NCBI GenBank assembly: GCA_023392205.1
Contig: JAEVZN010000219.1
Coordinates: 1-11,838, forward strand
DNA length: 11,838 bases
Origin: Pseudomonadota bacterium
GTDB taxonomy: Bacteria; Pseudomonadota; Alphaproteobacteria; Rhizobiales; Xanthobacteraceae
Direction of reading: 5' to 3'
Part shown: positions 4,168 through 11,692 of the stretch, piece by piece
Position numbering within the stretch: the stretch's first letter is position 1
How the letters are laid out: each line of letters starts with the position of its first letter
Translations under genes and position numbers: made by a program
Notes under the pieces: model-generated
What the model was told of the DNA's origin: nothing
The model's input: only the letters and a program-made list of their open reading frames with translations
Database searches by the model: none

Positions 4168-5133
4168 TCACATTCCGGCGGTCAGCATGATGGCGATGGG
4201 CATCAGCGCCACCATCGCGAAGGTGGTCAGCACCAGGGTCGAGGCCGCCTCGGTCTCGTAAATGCCGTAACGCGGCGCGAACAGCACGGCCAGAGCCGAA
4301 CTCGGAATGGCGCACATCAATATGACTTCGCGGCCGAGCGGCTCGCGCACCGCAAGCAGCATCACCAGCAGCAGCGCGAAAAGCGGCTGCGCAATCATCT
4401 TGGCGACCACATTGAAGACGATCTCGCCGCTCACCTTCACCTTGTAGGCGGCGATGATCAGGCCCGCGGCAAACAGCGAGACACCCGATGTGGTGGAGCC
4501 GATCAGCGCCAGCATATTGTCGAAAGTATCGGGCACGCGCAGGCCGGTCAGCACCACCGCCATCGCCGCCAGCGGCGACCAAACGACAGGCTTGGCGAGG
4601 CTGCTTTTCACCGCCGCAATAACATCATCGGCGATGCGCGCCACTTCCGCTTCCGCACTGGTCTTGGCCACGCGCTGGGCATGGATTTCCAGCAGCAGCA
4701 CGGTCAGCGGCGCCACGGTCAGGTTGGCGATCACCGTCGCACTCGTCACCGACAGCACGCCGGAATCGCCGAACAATCCTCTGAAAATCGGAATGCCCAT
4801 GAAGGCCACCGACGGAAAGCTCAAGAGGCAGGCCTGCAAGGCCGCCTCGCCCAGCGAATGGCGCAGCCCGTATATGCTCACCAGCAGCACCGCCACATAG
4901 AAGCCGGTAAAGGCGATCAATATGGCGATCAGGAAACCGGTCTCGCCGGCGGGCACATGCGCCGCCGACTTGACGATGCCCACGAACATCACGGCCGGTA
5001 GCGCGAAATCCAGCACCAGTTCGTTGATGCCCTTCACCTGGTCGGCATCGAAACGCTTTGCCCGCCCTGCCCAATAGCCGAGCAGCAATACGAACAGGAC
5101 GGGCATCAGGACCGAGAAGGAGGTTTCGAGCAT
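4168..5133 (-). CDS. AEC (auxin efflux carrier) family transporter
   Basis: This is a 321-residue integral membrane protein of the AEC family (Mdc/PIN-like secondary transporters of organic anions such as malonate). About ten hydrophobic segments are visible, e.g. residues 5-20, 40-55, 65-88, 100-117, 125-148, then a charged cytoplasmic loop at about 150-182, and further segments at 185-198, 215-230, 242-262, 270-285 and 298-318. Family-typical stretches are NELVLDFALPAVMF (37-50), the substrate-site proline region FPSVAFMGIPIF (106-117), and CAIPSSALAVLFAPRYG (274-290). Length matches the family. The start at 5133 gives the standard N-terminus but has no Shine-Dalgarno; instead a 19-bp near-palindrome ends 4 nt upstream. 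It is not a virion gene: it is inserted in the GTA block, divergent from the serine protease. Substrate unknown. Confidence 0.92.
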   Translation of the reverse strand: MLETSFSVLMPVLFVLLLGYWAGRAKRFDADQVKGINELVLDFALPAVMFVGIVKSAAHVPAGETGFLIAILIAFTGFYVAVLLVSIYGLRHSLGEAALQACLLSFPSVAFMGIPIFRGLFGDSGVLSVTSATVIANLTVAPLTVLLLEIHAQRVAKTSAEAEVARIADDVIAAVKSSLAKPVVWSPLAAMAVVLTGLRVPDTFDNMLALIGSTTSGVSLFAAGLIIAAYKVKVSGEIVFNVVAKMIAQPLFALLLVMLLAVREPLGREVILMCAIPSSALAVLFAPRYGIYETEAASTLVLTTFAMVALMPIAIMLTAGM

Positions 5134-5137
5134 AAGG

Positions 5138-5156
5138 AATTTTCGAATCGGAAATT
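5138..5156. promoter_or_regulatory. 19-bp near-perfect palindrome, candidate operator
   Basis: AATTTTCGAATCGGAAATT reads almost identically on both strands: eight of nine positions of each arm match around a central base. It is notably AT-rich against its GC-rich surroundings. It lies in the region between two divergent starts, 4 nt before the transporter ATG and about 95-120 nt before the protease start. A dimeric repressor bound here would block transporter initiation or early elongation. No regulator gene is visible beside it. Confidence 0.45.
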
Positions 5157-5249
5157 TGCGCGGGCGTTTCGCAGCCTCGCATCCGCAACGCCCGATTCCA
5201 AGAAAAAGGAACCGGTGCGACAGCGCCCGCCGCGCAGTTGACATCGCGC

Positions 5250-6032
5250 ATGAAGATCGCTCCAAGTTCGCCGGTCATGCGCCATCCCCTCCTCATCGTC
5301 GCCCTCCTCGTCGCATTCACCGCCCCCGCCTTCGCCCTGGTCGGTGGCGCACAGCCGGTTGGCGGAGCGCAGCCCGCGGTGATGATCGTCGGCTCGCGCG
5401 GCAATGCCTGCACCGGCGTGGCCATCGCCCGCGATCTGGTGCTGACGGCGGCGCATTGCGTACCGTCCGGCGCCGAATACAAACTGGTCGAATTCGATGC
5501 GCAGCGTCAGCCGCGCCTGCGCGATGTGCTGAGCGTCGCGCGGCATCCGCAATTCAGCCAGAAGGCGTTCGACGAAAGCCGCGCAACGGCCGACGTGGCG
5601 CTGCTGAAATTCGCAAGCCCCGTGGTTTCGGGGCCGCCCGCGCCCGTGCATCCGGCGCGGCTCTCCTTCACGCCCGACGACCGCTTCACGGTGCTGGGCT
5701 TCGGTCTCACCCGCATGGGCGATGGCAAGAGCGGCGGCACCTTGCGCAGCGCGCAGCTTCTGGTCACCGGCCGTCCCGGCAATCTGCAGATCCGGCTAAT
5801 GGACCCGGCCACCCGCAACCAGCGGCCGGGGCTTGGCGCCTGTACGGGCGATTCCGGTGGGCCGGTGTTTCGCGACATTGGCGGCCGCATGATGGTGATT
5901 GGCGTGGTGAGCTGGTCGACGGGCGCCGGCAATTCTGCCGGCTGCGGCGGCCTCACCGGCGTGACGCCGCTGTCCTTATATTATAGCTGGATCGCCGAAA
6001 CGGCGCGCAGGTTCGGTTCGCCGCTACCCTAG
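5250..6032 (+). CDS. Secreted chymotrypsin-fold (S1 family) serine protease
   Basis: This is a 260-residue exported endopeptidase. A Sec signal peptide (residues about 10-29, RHPLLIVALLVAF then APAFA) is predicted to be cut before LVGG at 30-33. The catalytic triad is clear: His69 in LTAAHC, Asp115 in TADVALL, Ser202 in CTGDSGGP. Cys54-Cys70 and Cys198-Cys232 fit the two conserved disulfides flanking the active site. The base of the S1 pocket (six residues before the Ser) is Gly rather than Asp, so Arg/Lys specificity is unlikely. A short VGGAQP direct repeat follows the cleavage site. The start is uncertain: ATG 5250 gives the longest ATG form, ATG 5277 gives a cleaner signal peptide, TTG 5238 is also in frame, and none has a good ribosome binding site. 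It is the only plus-strand gene, convergent with the capsid gene and divergent from the transporter. A role in the particle is not indicated. Confidence 0.9.
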   Translation: MKIAPSSPVMRHPLLIVALLVAFTAPAFALVGGAQPVGGAQPAVMIVGSRGNACTGVAIARDLVLTAAHCVPSGAEYKLVEFDAQRQPRLRDVLSVARHPQFSQKAFDESRATADVALLKFASPVVSGPPAPVHPARLSFTPDDRFTVLGFGLTRMGDGKSGGTLRSAQLLVTGRPGNLQIRLMDPATRNQRPGLGACTGDSGGPVFRDIGGRMMVIGVVSWSTGAGNSAGCGGLTGVTPLSLYYSWIAETARRFGSPLP

Positions 6033-8343: not shown

Positions 8344-9543
8344 TCAGGCAGGACCGGCGGGCAGCGTGTCGCCGCCCTCAAGGGGCGAATAGCCGACCGC
8401 AATCCGCTTCTCGTTCACGGTCAGGAACGGCGCATCCGTGACGCGCGACCACAGCGCATTGCGATCCGACGCCAGCGCGTCGATGCGGTCGGCATCCACC
8501 GCAAGCCGCAAGTCCGCGCCGAAGACCGGCGACAGCCATTGCGACAGCGCCCCGCAGATGCGTCCCATCAGCGGCAGCATGGTGGAGCGCCAGAAGGCGC
8601 GCTGCGCTTCCTGGTAATTGGCATAGGTATTGTCGCCGGGAATGCCGAGCAGCATCGGCGGCACACCGAAAGCGAGTGCGATCTCGCGCGCGGCATTGTT
8701 CTTGGCGTCGAGGAAATCCATGTCCTTGGGCGTCAGCGCCATCGCCTTCCAGTCGAGCCCGCCTTCGAGCAGGAGCGGCCGCCCGGCATTCACCGCGCCC
8801 TGATAATTGTCTTCCAGTTCGCGCTTGAGCCGTTCGAATTGGCCATCGGACAGCACCGCGCTGTCCGGTCCCGTGAAGACCAGCGCCCCGGAGGGCCGCG
8901 CGGCATTGTCGAGCAAGGCCTTGTTCCAGGCGGCGGCGGCATTGTGCGTATCGACGGCGATGGCGGCGGCTTCCAGCGGCGCCAACCCGTAATGATCGTC
9001 GAGCGGATGGAAATGCGTCAGATGCAGGATCGGCTGCAAAGCGCCCTCGCTTCGCACGAAGCGCAGGCTCTGTGCGCCGACATGATATTCATAGGCCTCC
9101 GTCCAGCCGTCGCGGTCCGGCACCACGCGTATCCGGTCCGGCCGCAATGCATGCAATTCGCGCACACGCCCGTCCAGTGTCACAGCCTCGAGATAGGCAT
9201 TTCCGGCGAGTTGCAGATGCGACACCAGCGTTTCGATGAAGGCGCCGCCGTCCTGGCGCGGATTGGGCCGCGCCAGAAGATCGAGTAGCGGATGCGTGCT
9301 GCGTTCGGTGTCGTTCTCGTAAAGCAGAAATCCGAGCTGGCCGGCATTTTCCGCGATCATCTTCACCGCCCGATGCACGACGGCATTGCGGCAATAGCCT
9401 TCGCGGGTCAGCGCGGCATAATCGCGCGGCGTCCAGCGCGCGCGTCCGCCGCTTTGCAGCGCGATCACCTGTGCGGTGCGGGAGGCCTTTATATCCGGGG
9501 CGGTCTGCGGTCGCGTTCCGGTAAACCATGACGGAAGCTTCAT
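8344..9543 (-). CDS. HK97-family portal protein, GTA gp3-like
   Basis: This is a 399-residue portal protein, the dodecameric ring through which DNA enters the head. Family motifs run in order: YCRNAVVHRAVKMIAENAGQ (about residues 50-69), LDLLARPNPRQDGGAFIETLV (about 87-107), GNAYLEAV, LHALRPDRIRVVPD (about 130-143), YGLAPLEAAA, LDWKAMALTPKDMDFLDAKN (about 264-283) and FGVPPMLLGIPGDNTYANYQEA (about 292-313). I chose ATG at 9543 (MKLPSWF); the longer frame upstream crosses a terminator hairpin and is not coding. The start has no clear ribosome binding site, but a five-codon ATG reading frame (9560-9543 region) ends in an ATGA overlap with it. It lies directly behind the intrinsic terminator of the small peptide unit, so its transcription needs readthrough or an unseen promoter. 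Confidence 0.95.
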   Translation of the reverse strand: MKLPSWFTGTRPQTAPDIKASRTAQVIALQSGGRARWTPRDYAALTREGYCRNAVVHRAVKMIAENAGQLGFLLYENDTERSTHPLLDLLARPNPRQDGGAFIETLVSHLQLAGNAYLEAVTLDGRVRELHALRPDRIRVVPDRDGWTEAYEYHVGAQSLRFVRSEGALQPILHLTHFHPLDDHYGLAPLEAAAIAVDTHNAAAAWNKALLDNAARPSGALVFTGPDSAVLSDGQFERLKRELEDNYQGAVNAGRPLLLEGGLDWKAMALTPKDMDFLDAKNNAAREIALAFGVPPMLLGIPGDNTYANYQEAQRAFWRSTMLPLMGRICGALSQWLSPVFGADLRLAVDADRIDALASDRNALWSRVTDAPFLTVNEKRIAVGYSPLEGGDTLPAGPA

Positions 9544-9585: not shown

Positions 9586-9614
9586 AAAAAGGCCCGCCTT
9601 GCGGCGAGCCTTTT
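9586..9614 (-). terminator. Intrinsic terminator downstream of the 24-residue peptide gene
   Basis: On the minus strand AAAAGGC-T-CGCC, loop GCAA, GGCG-G-GCCTTTTT forms an 11-bp stem with one mismatch, ending in five T residues. The plus-strand direction gives four T. It lies about 49 nt past the peptide stop and about 43 nt before the portal ATG. This is the clearest terminator in the window, and it sits inside what should be one GTA operon. Confidence 0.8.
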
Positions 9615-9662
9615 GGAAATTTCGAACGTGGGTCTGTTGCGTCAGCCCTGATGCGCGTTGGC

Positions 9663-9737
9663 TTAGAATACGCCGAGCAGCGCCAGAACGATGATCAGAC
9701 TCAACGGAACACCCAGCAACCACAGAATAATCGGCAT
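9663..9737 (-). CDS. 24-residue hydrophobic small membrane peptide
   Basis: This is a tiny gene encoding 24 residues, starting MPIILWLLGVPLSLI and ending in GVF: one membrane-spanning helix with no charged residue. Support for expression is unusually good: a perfect AAGGAGG Shine-Dalgarno at 9750-9744 with 6-nt spacing, a GGAAC-N16-CGTT match to the alphaproteobacterial EcfG stress promoter about 40-60 nt upstream, and an intrinsic terminator just downstream. Short hydrophobic proteins of this kind are common in Hyphomicrobiales and several belong to the general stress regulon; I do not recognise a named family with confidence. It is not part of any known GTA particle. A longer frame upstream (to 9908) lacks a ribosome binding site and starts inside the terminase gene. 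Confidence 0.75.
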   Translation of the reverse strand: MPIILWLLGVPLSLIIVLALLGVF

Positions 9738-9743
9738 TGTCGC

Positions 9744-9750
9744 CCTCCTT
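9744..9750 (-). promoter_or_regulatory. Perfect Shine-Dalgarno deciding the start of the 24-residue peptide
   Basis: AAGGAGG on the minus strand, 6 nt before the ATG at 9737. It is the strongest ribosome binding site in the window, stronger than that of any capsid or tail gene. Confidence 0.8.
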
Positions 9751-9774
9751 GATGTATCGATCGGTTGCGCGGAC

Positions 9775-9799
9775 AACGCGCGACTGGCGCGCGGGTTCC
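9775..9799 (-). promoter_or_regulatory. Candidate EcfG (general stress response sigma factor) promoter
   Basis: Minus-strand GGAAC (9799-9795), 16-nt spacer, CGTT (9778-9775) matches the alphaproteobacterial EcfG consensus GGAAC-N16/17-CGTT exactly. Transcription would begin near 9767, leaving a leader of about 30 nt before the 24-residue peptide. The spacer contains a CGCGCG inverted repeat, which could be chance in GC-rich DNA. Confidence 0.6.
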
Positions 9800-9870: not shown

Positions 9871-11235
9871 TCACAAACTTCGCACCCGCGGTCCCGGCCG
9901 TGCGCCAAAAGTCAGATGCGAGATCGCCCAGACCAGCGCATCGAGCCGGTCGGGCGAACGGCCGGACGACAATCCGTTCAATCCGAAATCGCACATCTCG
10001 TCCTCCAGCGATGCGAACCCGCCCTTATGTTTCACCCGCCCCTGCTCGTAGAGCGCGGCCACCGGCTCCGCGCGCAGCCACTTGCCGCGTGACGCACGCA
10101 CCGCGATCACCGGCACATCCGGATCTGCCTCGCCGATCACCGCGCGCACCATGTCGCCGCCCTGGTTGACCTCGACCACCAGCGCATCGGCCGACAGCCT
10201 ACGCCACAAGGCGATGGCCCGCGACGCCCAGCCGGCCGGCGACAGACCCTGTATCGTTTCATCGGCGATCACATAACAGACGCTGTTCGCGTCAAGACCT
10301 GCCGCCACCAGCCCGCAGGCATCGGCGCCCTTGCCGGAAGATGCCGGCGGATCGACCGCCACCACGATCCGCTGCAAGGGCGGTGCATCGGCAACCCGGC
10401 ACATCTCGAGCAATGCGCGCGACCACAAGGCATCCGGCCGGTCCTCGACGATCTCACCATCCAGTTCCTGCCGGCCGAGCCGCGTGCCGTCATAACGCTT
10501 CACCACATTGTCGATGAAGGCGGGTGAGAGATGATAGGCATTGGCCCGCGTCGGAGCGCGCGTCACCGCACTTGCCGGATCGGCGATGAGCCGCTTCAGG
10601 AGCGCGTTCGGCCGCGGCGTGGTGGTGATCGCCTGGCGCGGATGCACACCCAACCGCAATCCGAATTGCAGCATGTCGAAGGCGGACTCCGCCTGCTTCC
10701 ATTTCGCCAGTTCATCGCACCAGGCGGCGGAGAATTGCGGCCCGCGCAGGCTTTCCGGATCTTCCGCCGAAAAGGCCTGCGCGATCGCGCCGTTGGCCCA
10801 TTCCAGCCGCCGCCGCGAGGGCGACCAGAGCGGTCGCTTCTCGCGTGCATGCACGGACAGCAGGCCCGATACACCCTCGACCATCACCTCGCGCGTTTCG
10901 TGTTCTGTCTCCCCAATCAGCGCGATGCGCCGCTCTTCCTCGTCCTCCCCGCGCGGTGCCTCCGCGATGGCCCGCACCCATTCGGCGCCGGCGCGGGTCT
11001 TGCCCGCCCCGCGTCCGCCGATCAGCAGCCAGGTGCTCCAGGGCTCGCCGTTATTGCCAAGAAGCGGCGGACGCTGATGCGGGTGGCAATGCACGTCCCA
11101 CGCCGCGTTGAACATTGCGAGTTCCGCGGCATCAAGCGCCGCCATTACCTTCGGAATGTCGCTGGGCGACAATCGCTGCGAGTTTTGCCGCAACAGATCG
11201 TCGAAGCTCGTCAATGGATCGCGGAACGGGCTCAT
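9871..11235 (-). CDS. Phage/GTA large terminase (DNA packaging ATPase-nuclease), GTA gp2-like
   Basis: This is a 454-residue packaging motor. Walker A GGRGAGKT is at residues 73-80, followed by RAGAEWVR as usual in GTA terminases. Walker B with catalytic Glu is AAWCDE (170-175), and the coupling motif is ITTTPRP (203-209). The C-terminal RNase H-like nuclease has Asp295 (VVAVDPP), Glu355 (LVVEVNQGG) and Asp432 (DRLDAL). All key residues are present, so the enzyme looks active. Start choice is unsure: ATG 11235 overlaps the upstream gene by 104 nt and has GAGAAG about 10 nt before it; ATG 11145 would overlap by only 14 nt and drop 30 residues (not motifs). It works with the small terminase and portal to fill heads with host DNA. 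Confidence 0.96.
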   Translation of the reverse strand: MSPFRDPLTSFDDLLRQNSQRLSPSDIPKVMAALDAAELAMFNAAWDVHCHPHQRPPLLGNNGEPWSTWLLIGGRGAGKTRAGAEWVRAIAEAPRGEDEEERRIALIGETEHETREVMVEGVSGLLSVHAREKRPLWSPSRRRLEWANGAIAQAFSAEDPESLRGPQFSAAWCDELAKWKQAESAFDMLQFGLRLGVHPRQAITTTPRPNALLKRLIADPASAVTRAPTRANAYHLSPAFIDNVVKRYDGTRLGRQELDGEIVEDRPDALWSRALLEMCRVADAPPLQRIVVAVDPPASSGKGADACGLVAAGLDANSVCYVIADETIQGLSPAGWASRAIALWRRLSADALVVEVNQGGDMVRAVIGEADPDVPVIAVRASRGKWLRAEPVAALYEQGRVKHKGGFASLEDEMCDFGLNGLSSGRSPDRLDALVWAISHLTFGARPGPRVRSL

Positions 11236-11692
11236 CCTTCGATGTCTTCTCTTTCGCGATCCTGCGCTTCCGCGCATCCGTCTCGTGCCGCGCATCGAGC
11301 GCGGTCAGCGATTGCAGCGTCCTCGCCAGCAACGCCAGCGTGCGGGCACAGCGCTCGCGGTCGCCGAGCGCCTGGCTGCTGCCGGCGAGACGCGCTTCGA
11401 TCTCGCCGATCTGCGCTTCCGCCGCGCGCATCATGCGACTGGCCAGCGTGAGCCGGTCTTCTGTCATGATGCGCTGCGGCGCCTTGCGGCGTTTGCCCAG
11501 CGGCGGCAGGAGCGGCCGGCCGGTTGCATCCTTCGGTCCGCCAGCGATCCAGCGATACAGCGTCCAGTCGCTGAACCCGGTCGCCTGTCGGATATCGCGA
11601 ATGGGCGCGCCGTCCGCATACATCTTCCGCGCATGCACGGCGTTGTCTGGAATGTCACTGACGGGAATGGTGCTGTCGGGACTCTCGGACAT
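11132..11692 (-). CDS. Small terminase-like protein with N-terminal helix-turn-helix, GTA gp1 position
   Basis: This is a 186-residue protein. Residues about 18-52 (ARKMYADGAPIRDIRQATGF then SDWTLYRWIAGG) form a convincing helix-turn-helix of the small-terminase/transposase type. A basic linker follows (GKRRKAP, about 66-72), then long helices (about 79-140) suited to oligomerisation, and a charged C-terminal tail with RKRRIAKEK. It is the first gene of the cluster. I chose ATG at 11692 because GGGGGA stands 8 nt upstream; a TTG at 11740 would add 16 residues and lacks such a site. The family role is recognising or handing DNA to the large terminase. In GTAs packaging is nearly sequence-independent, so the DNA-binding specificity of this domain is open. 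Confidence 0.85.
   Translation of the reverse strand: MSESPDSTIPVSDIPDNAVHARKMYADGAPIRDIRQATGFSDWTLYRWIAGGPKDATGRPLLPPLGKRRKAPQRIMTEDRLTLASRMMRAAEAQIGEIEARLAGSSQALGDRERCARTLALLARTLQSLTALDARHETDARKRRIAKEKTSKDEPVPRSIDELRRSVAAKLAAIVAQRHSEGNGGA

What the first reader, a model, noticed from the sequence alone, without database searches (positions are those of the whole stretch)
9586..9799. Self-contained stress-type transcription unit for a 24-residue membrane peptide nested inside a GTA cluster
Within about 215 bp on the minus strand I see, in the right order and spacing, GGAAC-N16-CGTT (exact EcfG consensus), a 30-nt leader, a perfect AAGGAGG, a 24-codon all-hydrophobic ORF, and an intrinsic terminator. 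A 9-base motif with two allowed spacings is expected well under once in this window by chance under uniform base use, and here it coincides with the strongest ribosome binding site and terminator. GTAs are tied to stress and stationary phase, so a general-stress membrane peptide carried as a 'moron' between terminase and portal could link particle production, release or cell survival to stress.
Basis: partly seen in the sequence, partly recalled or inferred. Interest (0 to 1): 0.75.

Follow-up and report, generated by a model that had tools for sequence, protein, structure and literature searches.

The report
Stress-controlled membrane micropeptide inside GTA cluster
A tiny gene for a 24-residue membrane peptide, with its own general-stress promoter and terminator, sits inside a bacterial gene-transfer-agent cluster; it belongs to a conserved but unnamed peptide family that often carries the same stress promoter in bacteria that have this stress system.

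Summary
It is a real gene. Units with a GGAAC-N16 promoter 59-65 nt before the start lie upstream of portal in at least five other genomes. Against the two closest copies, 12 of 14 and 10 of 11 changed codons are synonymous. The peptide belongs to an unnamed family with a W-x-x-G-x-P core. In a phylum sample, an EcfG-like motif precedes it in 24 of 31 scored genomes with the anti-sigma factor NepR (13 exact) and in 0 of 12 without. Copies outside GTAs often neighbour a ~300-aa hydrophobic protein, in either gene order. So the 'stress moron' reading is supported. A role in GTA production or release is not: the unit is terminated before portal and most GTAs examined lack it. Action in the membrane is inferred; transcription, EcfG dependence and translation were not testable. 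Neither Pfam nor NCBIfam names the family, and a search for six core strings found no paper.

The parts
9795..9799 (-). -35 element GGAAC of EcfG-type promoter
   Evidence: present in all 7 GTA-resident copies, window included
9775..9778 (-). -10 element CGTT, 16-nt spacer
   Evidence: CGTT in 5 of 7 GTA-resident copies, CATT in L016 and TGTT in one L011 copy
9738..9767 (-). inferred ~30-nt leader (start site not mapped)
   Evidence: inference from promoter position
9744..9750 (-). ribosome-binding site AAGGAGG
9663..9737 (-). 24-codon ORF, hydrophobic membrane micropeptide MPIILWLLGVPLSLIIVLALLGVF
9586..9614 (-). intrinsic terminator hairpin plus T run
9871..11256 (-). flanking gene: terminase large subunit (terL, GTA g2)
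   Evidence: Terminase_6N, Terminase_6C
8344..9543 (-). flanking gene: portal protein (GTA g3)
   Evidence: portal_HK97, Phage_portal; start by eye

Best explanation
The feature is a self-contained, monocistronic stress cassette. The general-stress sigma factor EcfG, freed from NepR by PhyR under stress (established pathway, recalled), would read GGAAC-N16-CGTT and make a ~180-nt mRNA, translated into a 24-residue single-pass inner-membrane peptide and ending at the hairpin before portal. The peptide belongs to a conserved, unnamed W-x-x-G-[VI]-P micropeptide family. Its non-GTA copies often neighbour a ~300-aa protein with four hydrophobic stretches, so the most likely action is as a small membrane subunit or modulator (of that protein, its relatives or another envelope protein) that supports the cell envelope under stress. 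The GTA cluster is a permissive landing site (moron cargo), not the peptide's target. Shown: sequence anatomy, conservation, coding constraint, promoter association across the family, neighbouring gene. Inferred: transcription by EcfG, membrane insertion, partnership, envelope role.
For: Exact unit in the window. Like units upstream of portal in G011 (two copies), G016, G064, G096 and G138, promoter 59-65 nt before the start. Window vs G096: 12 synonymous and 2 changed codons; vs G016: 10 and 1; 0 of 4000 random placements as conservative in either. Phylum sample: motif (GGAAC-N16/17-NGTT or CATT, within 120 nt) in 24 of 31 NepR-positive and 0 of 12 NepR-negative genomes; exact CGTT in 13 of 31 and 0 of 12; without CATT 19 of 31. 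Background for random 75-nt windows of the fetched loci: 93 of 20000 relaxed, 40 exact. Exact motif at -66 S. meliloti, -62 Paracoccus versutus, -60 Bradyrhizobium japonicum, -73 Rhizobium sullae, counted from the tblastn match start. A ~300-aa gene family lies beside the peptide in 14 of 21 loci checked (L093 plus 13 of 20); in 7 of 9 of the loci GGAAC-N16-[GT]GTT lies 58-84 nt before that gene (none exact). NepR in 7 of 8 genomes searched, 4 of the 5 GTA carriers.
Against: No expression data. The window's own genome is not held, so its EcfG/PhyR/NepR could not be checked. G138, with an exact unit, gave no NepR match. 4 of 8 plasmid-borne homologues lacked the motif in the 160 nt upstream; in 3 of these 4 the ~300-aa gene is a neighbour (L150, L151, L154). 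In the first family set only 12 of 41 had the motif directly upstream (7 exact). The CATT variant was added to the motif after I saw it in L016. The family also occurs in 25 NepR-negative genomes of the phylum sample and the 12 scored lack the motif, so stress control is not universal, and the NepR link is partly one of ancestry. Exact motifs without an assigned gene also occur in the fetched regions (L088 three, L089 one, L016 one). The partner was not found at E 1e-5 in G011, G096 or G138, and not beside the peptide in 7 of 21 loci. Codon evidence is weak against the far copies (64 and 162 of 4000 for G138 and G064).
Confidence: 0.72

Rival explanations
1. The peptide serves the GTA: it acts in the membrane on particle release or producer-cell survival, and the stress promoter ties that to stationary phase.
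For: Location before portal in at least six GTA clusters, in four of them with a peptide start 180-221 nt before the portal match. In R. capsulatus a different partner-switching system (Rba) affects RcGTA and stationary-phase viability (PMC3999984, passages seen).
Against: Seen near portal in at least 5 of 171 portal-bearing genomes only; 6 of 120 listed peptide places are near a portal (by eye); own terminator before portal; other cargo shares the gap in L016 and L089.
Confidence: 0.12
2. It is a hydrophobic peptide toxin of type I toxin-antitoxin kind, held in check by an antisense RNA.
For: Very short, wholly hydrophobic, more than one copy in some genomes.
Against: Short leader with a strong ribosome site, no sigma-70-like site found in the window, no Rfam match in the window, stress-type promoter common in the family. 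None of these excludes an antisense RNA.
Confidence: 0.08
3. The unit makes a small regulatory RNA, or the ORF is a leader peptide controlling portal; the peptide itself has no function.
For: Short transcript expected, with a strong terminator just before portal.
Against: Between the seven GTA-resident copies second codon positions differ at 0-2 of 24 sites, third positions at 5-11 and first positions at 2-10; the peptide is conserved in unrelated gene contexts.
Confidence: 0.05
4. Chance: a motif, a ribosome site and a short hydrophobic frame that happen to coincide.
For: The motif alone appears in 17 of 200 shuffles.
Against: Conserved unit with near-constant spacing in other genomes and association across the family.
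Confidence: 0.01

Closest known systems
EcfG (sigma-EcfG/RpoE2) general-stress regulon of Alphaproteobacteria
   Same: GGAAC-N16/17-CGTT promoter (consensus recalled); 7 of 8 comparison genomes hold NepR
   Different: The micropeptide has no Pfam model and no credible NCBIfam one; no held paper has three of the four terms EcfG, small ORF, hydrophobic peptide, general stress response
RcGTA-type gene transfer agent clusters
   Same: Window genes match TerL, portal, S78 protease, HK97 capsid, connector, tail tube, GTA-gp10, DUF2460 and a baseplate hub N-domain
   Different: The cassette is not a GTA structural gene; 51 of 57 distinct portal loci showed no copy in the stretch examined
Single-pass stress micropeptides such as E. 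coli YoaJ or Listeria Prli42 (recalled)
   Same: About 20-30 residues, one hydrophobic stretch
   Different: No sequence relation tested; different core and regulator
Phage morons (recalled concept)
   Same: Own promoter and terminator, inserted between structural genes, patchy among relatives
   Different: Carried by a GTA, and under a promoter of host stress type

Membership tests
EcfG regulon | GGAAC-N16/17-CGTT promoter upstream of the gene | tested here: met
EcfG regulon | host has PhyR-NepR-EcfG | tested here: inconclusive
   NepR in 7 of 8 comparison genomes, not in G138; the window's genome is not held; PhyR and EcfG themselves not searched
EcfG regulon | expression depends on EcfG | not testable with these tools
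   needs RNA from wild type and mutant
W-x-x-G-x-P micropeptide family (defined here) | 22-28 residues, hydrophobic, invariant W, G, P | tested here: met
   22 of 22 members that I picked by hand; the set was filtered by this motif, so it is no further test
RcGTA-type GTA cluster (for the surroundings) | terL, portal, protease, capsid, connector and tail genes incl. GTA-gp10 in order | tested here: met
GTA structural or lysis gene (for the peptide) | conserved across GTA clusters | tested here: not met
   6 carriers among 57 distinct portal loci
Type I toxin | antisense RNA antitoxin | tested here: inconclusive
   no sigma-70-like site and no Rfam match in the window; absence of an antisense RNA not shown
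Moron | autonomous promoter and terminator between structural genes, patchy distribution | tested here: met
   by sequence only:

The most novel reading that the evidence does not exclude
A proteobacterial, unnamed family of 22-28-residue membrane micropeptides with a W-x-x-G-x-P core was captured by the EcfG regulon in Alphaproteobacteria and is an overlooked, common output of that stress response, working with a large unnamed ~300-aa membrane protein family; GTA clusters have become carriers of EcfG-driven membrane cassettes (the 24-aa peptide, a second 51-aa peptide, and in G064 a partner-like gene behind the capsid), so stress-protection genes ride in the GTA locus.
Probability: 0.4. Interest if true: 0.75.

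Novelty: new variant of a known kind. Interest (0 to 1): 0.6.

Why it matters
It adds an unnamed, conserved micropeptide family to the likely outputs of the alphaproteobacterial general stress response, one that annotation usually misses, and gives it a testable neighbour gene. It also shows that GTA clusters, usually seen as stripped-down and domesticated, can host independently regulated stress cassettes.

Tried and rejected
Rejected: GTA structural role (patchy); leader-peptide or RNA-only reading (codon pattern); chance. Pfam gave nothing for 22 peptides; NCBIfam gave 3 of 22 a weak hit to an archaeal sorting domain, best E 0.022. tblastn of the peptide in 50,697 phage records found nothing. 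A portal scan of viral contigs gave 17 loci; none of the five close ones (L070-L074) showed the peptide in the stretch before portal. The AlphaFold model of the ~300-aa partner was poor (mean pLDDT 50), so no fold search was run. The portal tree (quick method) puts 4 of 6 carriers (window, G016, G064, G096) in a group of five rows (SH-aLRT 88; L070 is the non-carrier); the label needs 4 changes (6 of 500 shuffles as low) and one origin is not ruled out. The G138 row has a very long branch (its portal match is partial), so its place is unsure.

Dropped before counts: seven duplicate or partial loci were left out by hand and six identical rows merged. In one search one L011 copy (GTG start, weak ribosome site) was not picked up, and upstream starts chosen by the script hid the motif in at least L037 and L048, so 12 of 41 is an undercount. 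In one search I examined 50 of the 64 peptide-positive genomes, one locus each (31 of 39 NepR-positive, 19 of 25 NepR-negative); 7 loci gave no small ORF under the script's rules, all NepR-negative, and were not counted. Some counted loci are near-copies (L158/L159, L165/L166, L190/L202), and L028 is the GTA copy of G016. The 9 loci were chosen by me as non-GTA copies without a motif directly upstream.

Full report
What is there. On the minus strand, between terL (ends 9871) and portal (ATG probably 9543), lie GGAAC 9799-9795, a 16-nt spacer, CGTT 9778-9775, AAGGAGG 9750-9744, an ATG at 9737, 24 codons, a stop ending at 9663, and a hairpin with GCAA loop and T run, 9614-9586. The exact N16 motif occurs once in the window against 0.10 expected; 17 of 200 shuffles hold at least one. 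The hairpin folds at -21 kcal/mol, z -3.0. The surroundings are an RcGTA-type cluster: TerL, HK97-type portal, S78 protease, HK97 capsid, connector, head completion, tail completion, tail tube, GTA-gp10, DUF2460 and a hub N-domain.

Is it conserved? The window's genome is not held. A scan of genome contigs with the portal gave 27 relatives, 50-75% identical, among them Afipia, Pseudolabrys, Rhodoplanes and Pseudorhodoplanes. Two of 27, L011 and L016, showed the peptide between terL and portal; where one search placed no terL before portal, the 1.5 kb before portal were examined. A search of 296 genomes of the family of G016 found the peptide in 98 at E 0.05 and the portal in 171 at 1e-60. Comparing the two place lists by eye, 6 of the 120 listed peptide places, in five genomes (G011 twice, G016, G064, G096, G138), lie within 5 kb upstream of a portal. 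The portal list was cut at its weak end and drafts split contigs, so five is a lower bound. With the window that is six GTA clusters and seven copies. All seven have GGAAC, a 16-nt spacer and a -10-like element 59-65 nt before the start: CGTT in five, CATT and TGTT in one each. Hairpins with T runs are visible by eye after the ORF in all seven; only the window's was folded. In four clusters a copy starts 180-221 nt before the portal match; in G064 it is 1.3 kb and in G016 3.1 kb away, where genes that look by eye like a transposase and others follow.

Is it coding? Between the seven copies second codon positions differ at 0-2 of 24 sites, third positions at 5-11, first positions at 2-10. Window against G096: 12 synonymous and 2 changed codons; against G016: 10 and 1; 0 of 4000 random placements of the same substitutions were as conservative. 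Against the two G011 copies 2 and 8 of 4000 were; against G138 64; against G064 162. Constraint on the peptide is clear for the near copies and weak for the far ones.

The family. 14 of the 27 portal relatives hold a match somewhere at E 5. The 22 members that I aligned hold 22-28 residues and share W, G and P. None matches Pfam; in NCBIfam 3 of 22 give a weak hit to an archaeal sorting domain. tblastn found homologues in 8 and 40 plasmid records with two queries; of 8 that I opened, 4 carry usable annotation and none of these 4 has a gene called at the peptide, while one unopened Paracoccus record does, as a hypothetical protein. A full-text search for six core strings found 0 papers.

Stress promoter across the family. 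In a 398-genome phylum sample the peptide profile matched 64 genomes and NepR 92, with 39 shared (Fisher p 6e-13); part of that link is plain ancestry. I looked upstream of the peptide in 50 of the 64 genomes; 43 gave a scorable small ORF. NepR-positive: 24 of 31 with the relaxed motif within 120 nt, 19 without the CATT variant, 13 exact. NepR-negative: 0 of 12, although the peptide is conserved there. That contrast is the strongest evidence that the promoter belongs to the stress system. The promoter is not universal: in the earlier set only 12 of 41 copies had the motif directly upstream. Many of those copies follow the ~300-aa gene: in the 9 such loci that I picked, the peptide starts 6-38 nt after that gene's stop, and 7 of 9 have GGAAC-N16 followed by GGTT (6) or TGTT (1) 58-84 nt before the gene's first ATG; none is exact.

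The partner. The ~300-aa protein has no Pfam family, four hydrophobic stretches and at least 2525 relatives at 1e-10, called hypothetical where the 120 listed bear a name. A homologue lies beside the peptide in 14 of 21 loci checked: L093 itself and 13 of 20 others, 30-60% identical. It precedes the peptide in L091-L099 and in Beijerinckia (L154), and follows it in Phyllobacterium, Ensifer and Rhizobium sullae (L150-L152). The swapped order argues for a functional tie. In whole-genome searches it was found in 3 of 8 genomes (G006, G016, G064). In G064 a distant relative (31%) lies inside the GTA cluster behind the capsid gene; an exact EcfG-type motif lies 66 nt before the start of its longest frame, further if an inner start is used. 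In G016 a weak peptide match lies about 33 nt behind the partner gene, 26 kb from the GTA copy.

Other cargo. Upstream of portal in L006, L012 and L018 lies an unrelated 51-aa protein with one hydrophobic stretch, preceded by an exact EcfG-type motif (70, about 134 and 115 nt; the L012 gene was read by eye). One search, which reports only the last terL match, placed no terL before portal in these three loci, so this is not shown to be the terL-portal gap. The protein database gave 4 entries for the L006 protein, one identical. The spacing varies and the motif is not rare over 1.5 kb, so this is suggestive only; other exact motifs without an assigned gene occur too. The window's nearest portal relative (L070, 78%) shows no peptide in its gap.

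Reading. The unit is most likely a stress-regulated cassette in a GTA locus that tolerates cargo. Its terminator, patchy distribution and many non-GTA relatives speak against a GTA function. The likely work of the peptide is in the inner membrane under stress, perhaps with the ~300-aa partner; this step is inference. Papers: passages of PMC3999984, PMC4842269 and PMC10117765 were seen; none of the passages shown names this peptide. Other papers were seen in listings only.

Noticed in passing
window 5238-6032 (+): A trypsin-like serine protease gene on the opposite strand near the connector gene; a relative lies in 18 of 21 fetched GTA loci that hold both capsid and connector. A conserved GTA companion gene; literature not searched.
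   Followed up: partly
window 4168-5265 (-): A membrane transport protein (Mem_trans) gene between connector and the protease gene; found in 0 of the same 21 loci, so likely recent cargo.
   Followed up: partly
L006, L012, L018, upstream of portal: A 51-aa protein with one hydrophobic stretch, unrelated to the 24-aa peptide, with an exact EcfG-type motif upstream.
   Followed up: partly
L155 8114-9076 (-): A ~320-aa protein distantly like the peptide's usual neighbour, with an exact EcfG-type motif at 9142, inside the GTA cluster behind the capsid gene.
   Followed up: partly
L011 3995-5320 and 15715-16938: Two terL-like genes in one GTA region, one on each side of portal and capsid.
   Followed up: no
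L070 6870-7170: The gap in the window's nearest portal relative shows no peptide; by eye its minus strand looks like a GIY-YIG endonuclease (not searched).
   Followed up: no
L016 6208-6822 (+) and L089 8054-8656 (-): A similar ~200-aa gene (cupin-like by eye) lies just before the peptide unit in both loci, which also pair in the portal tree.
   Followed up: no
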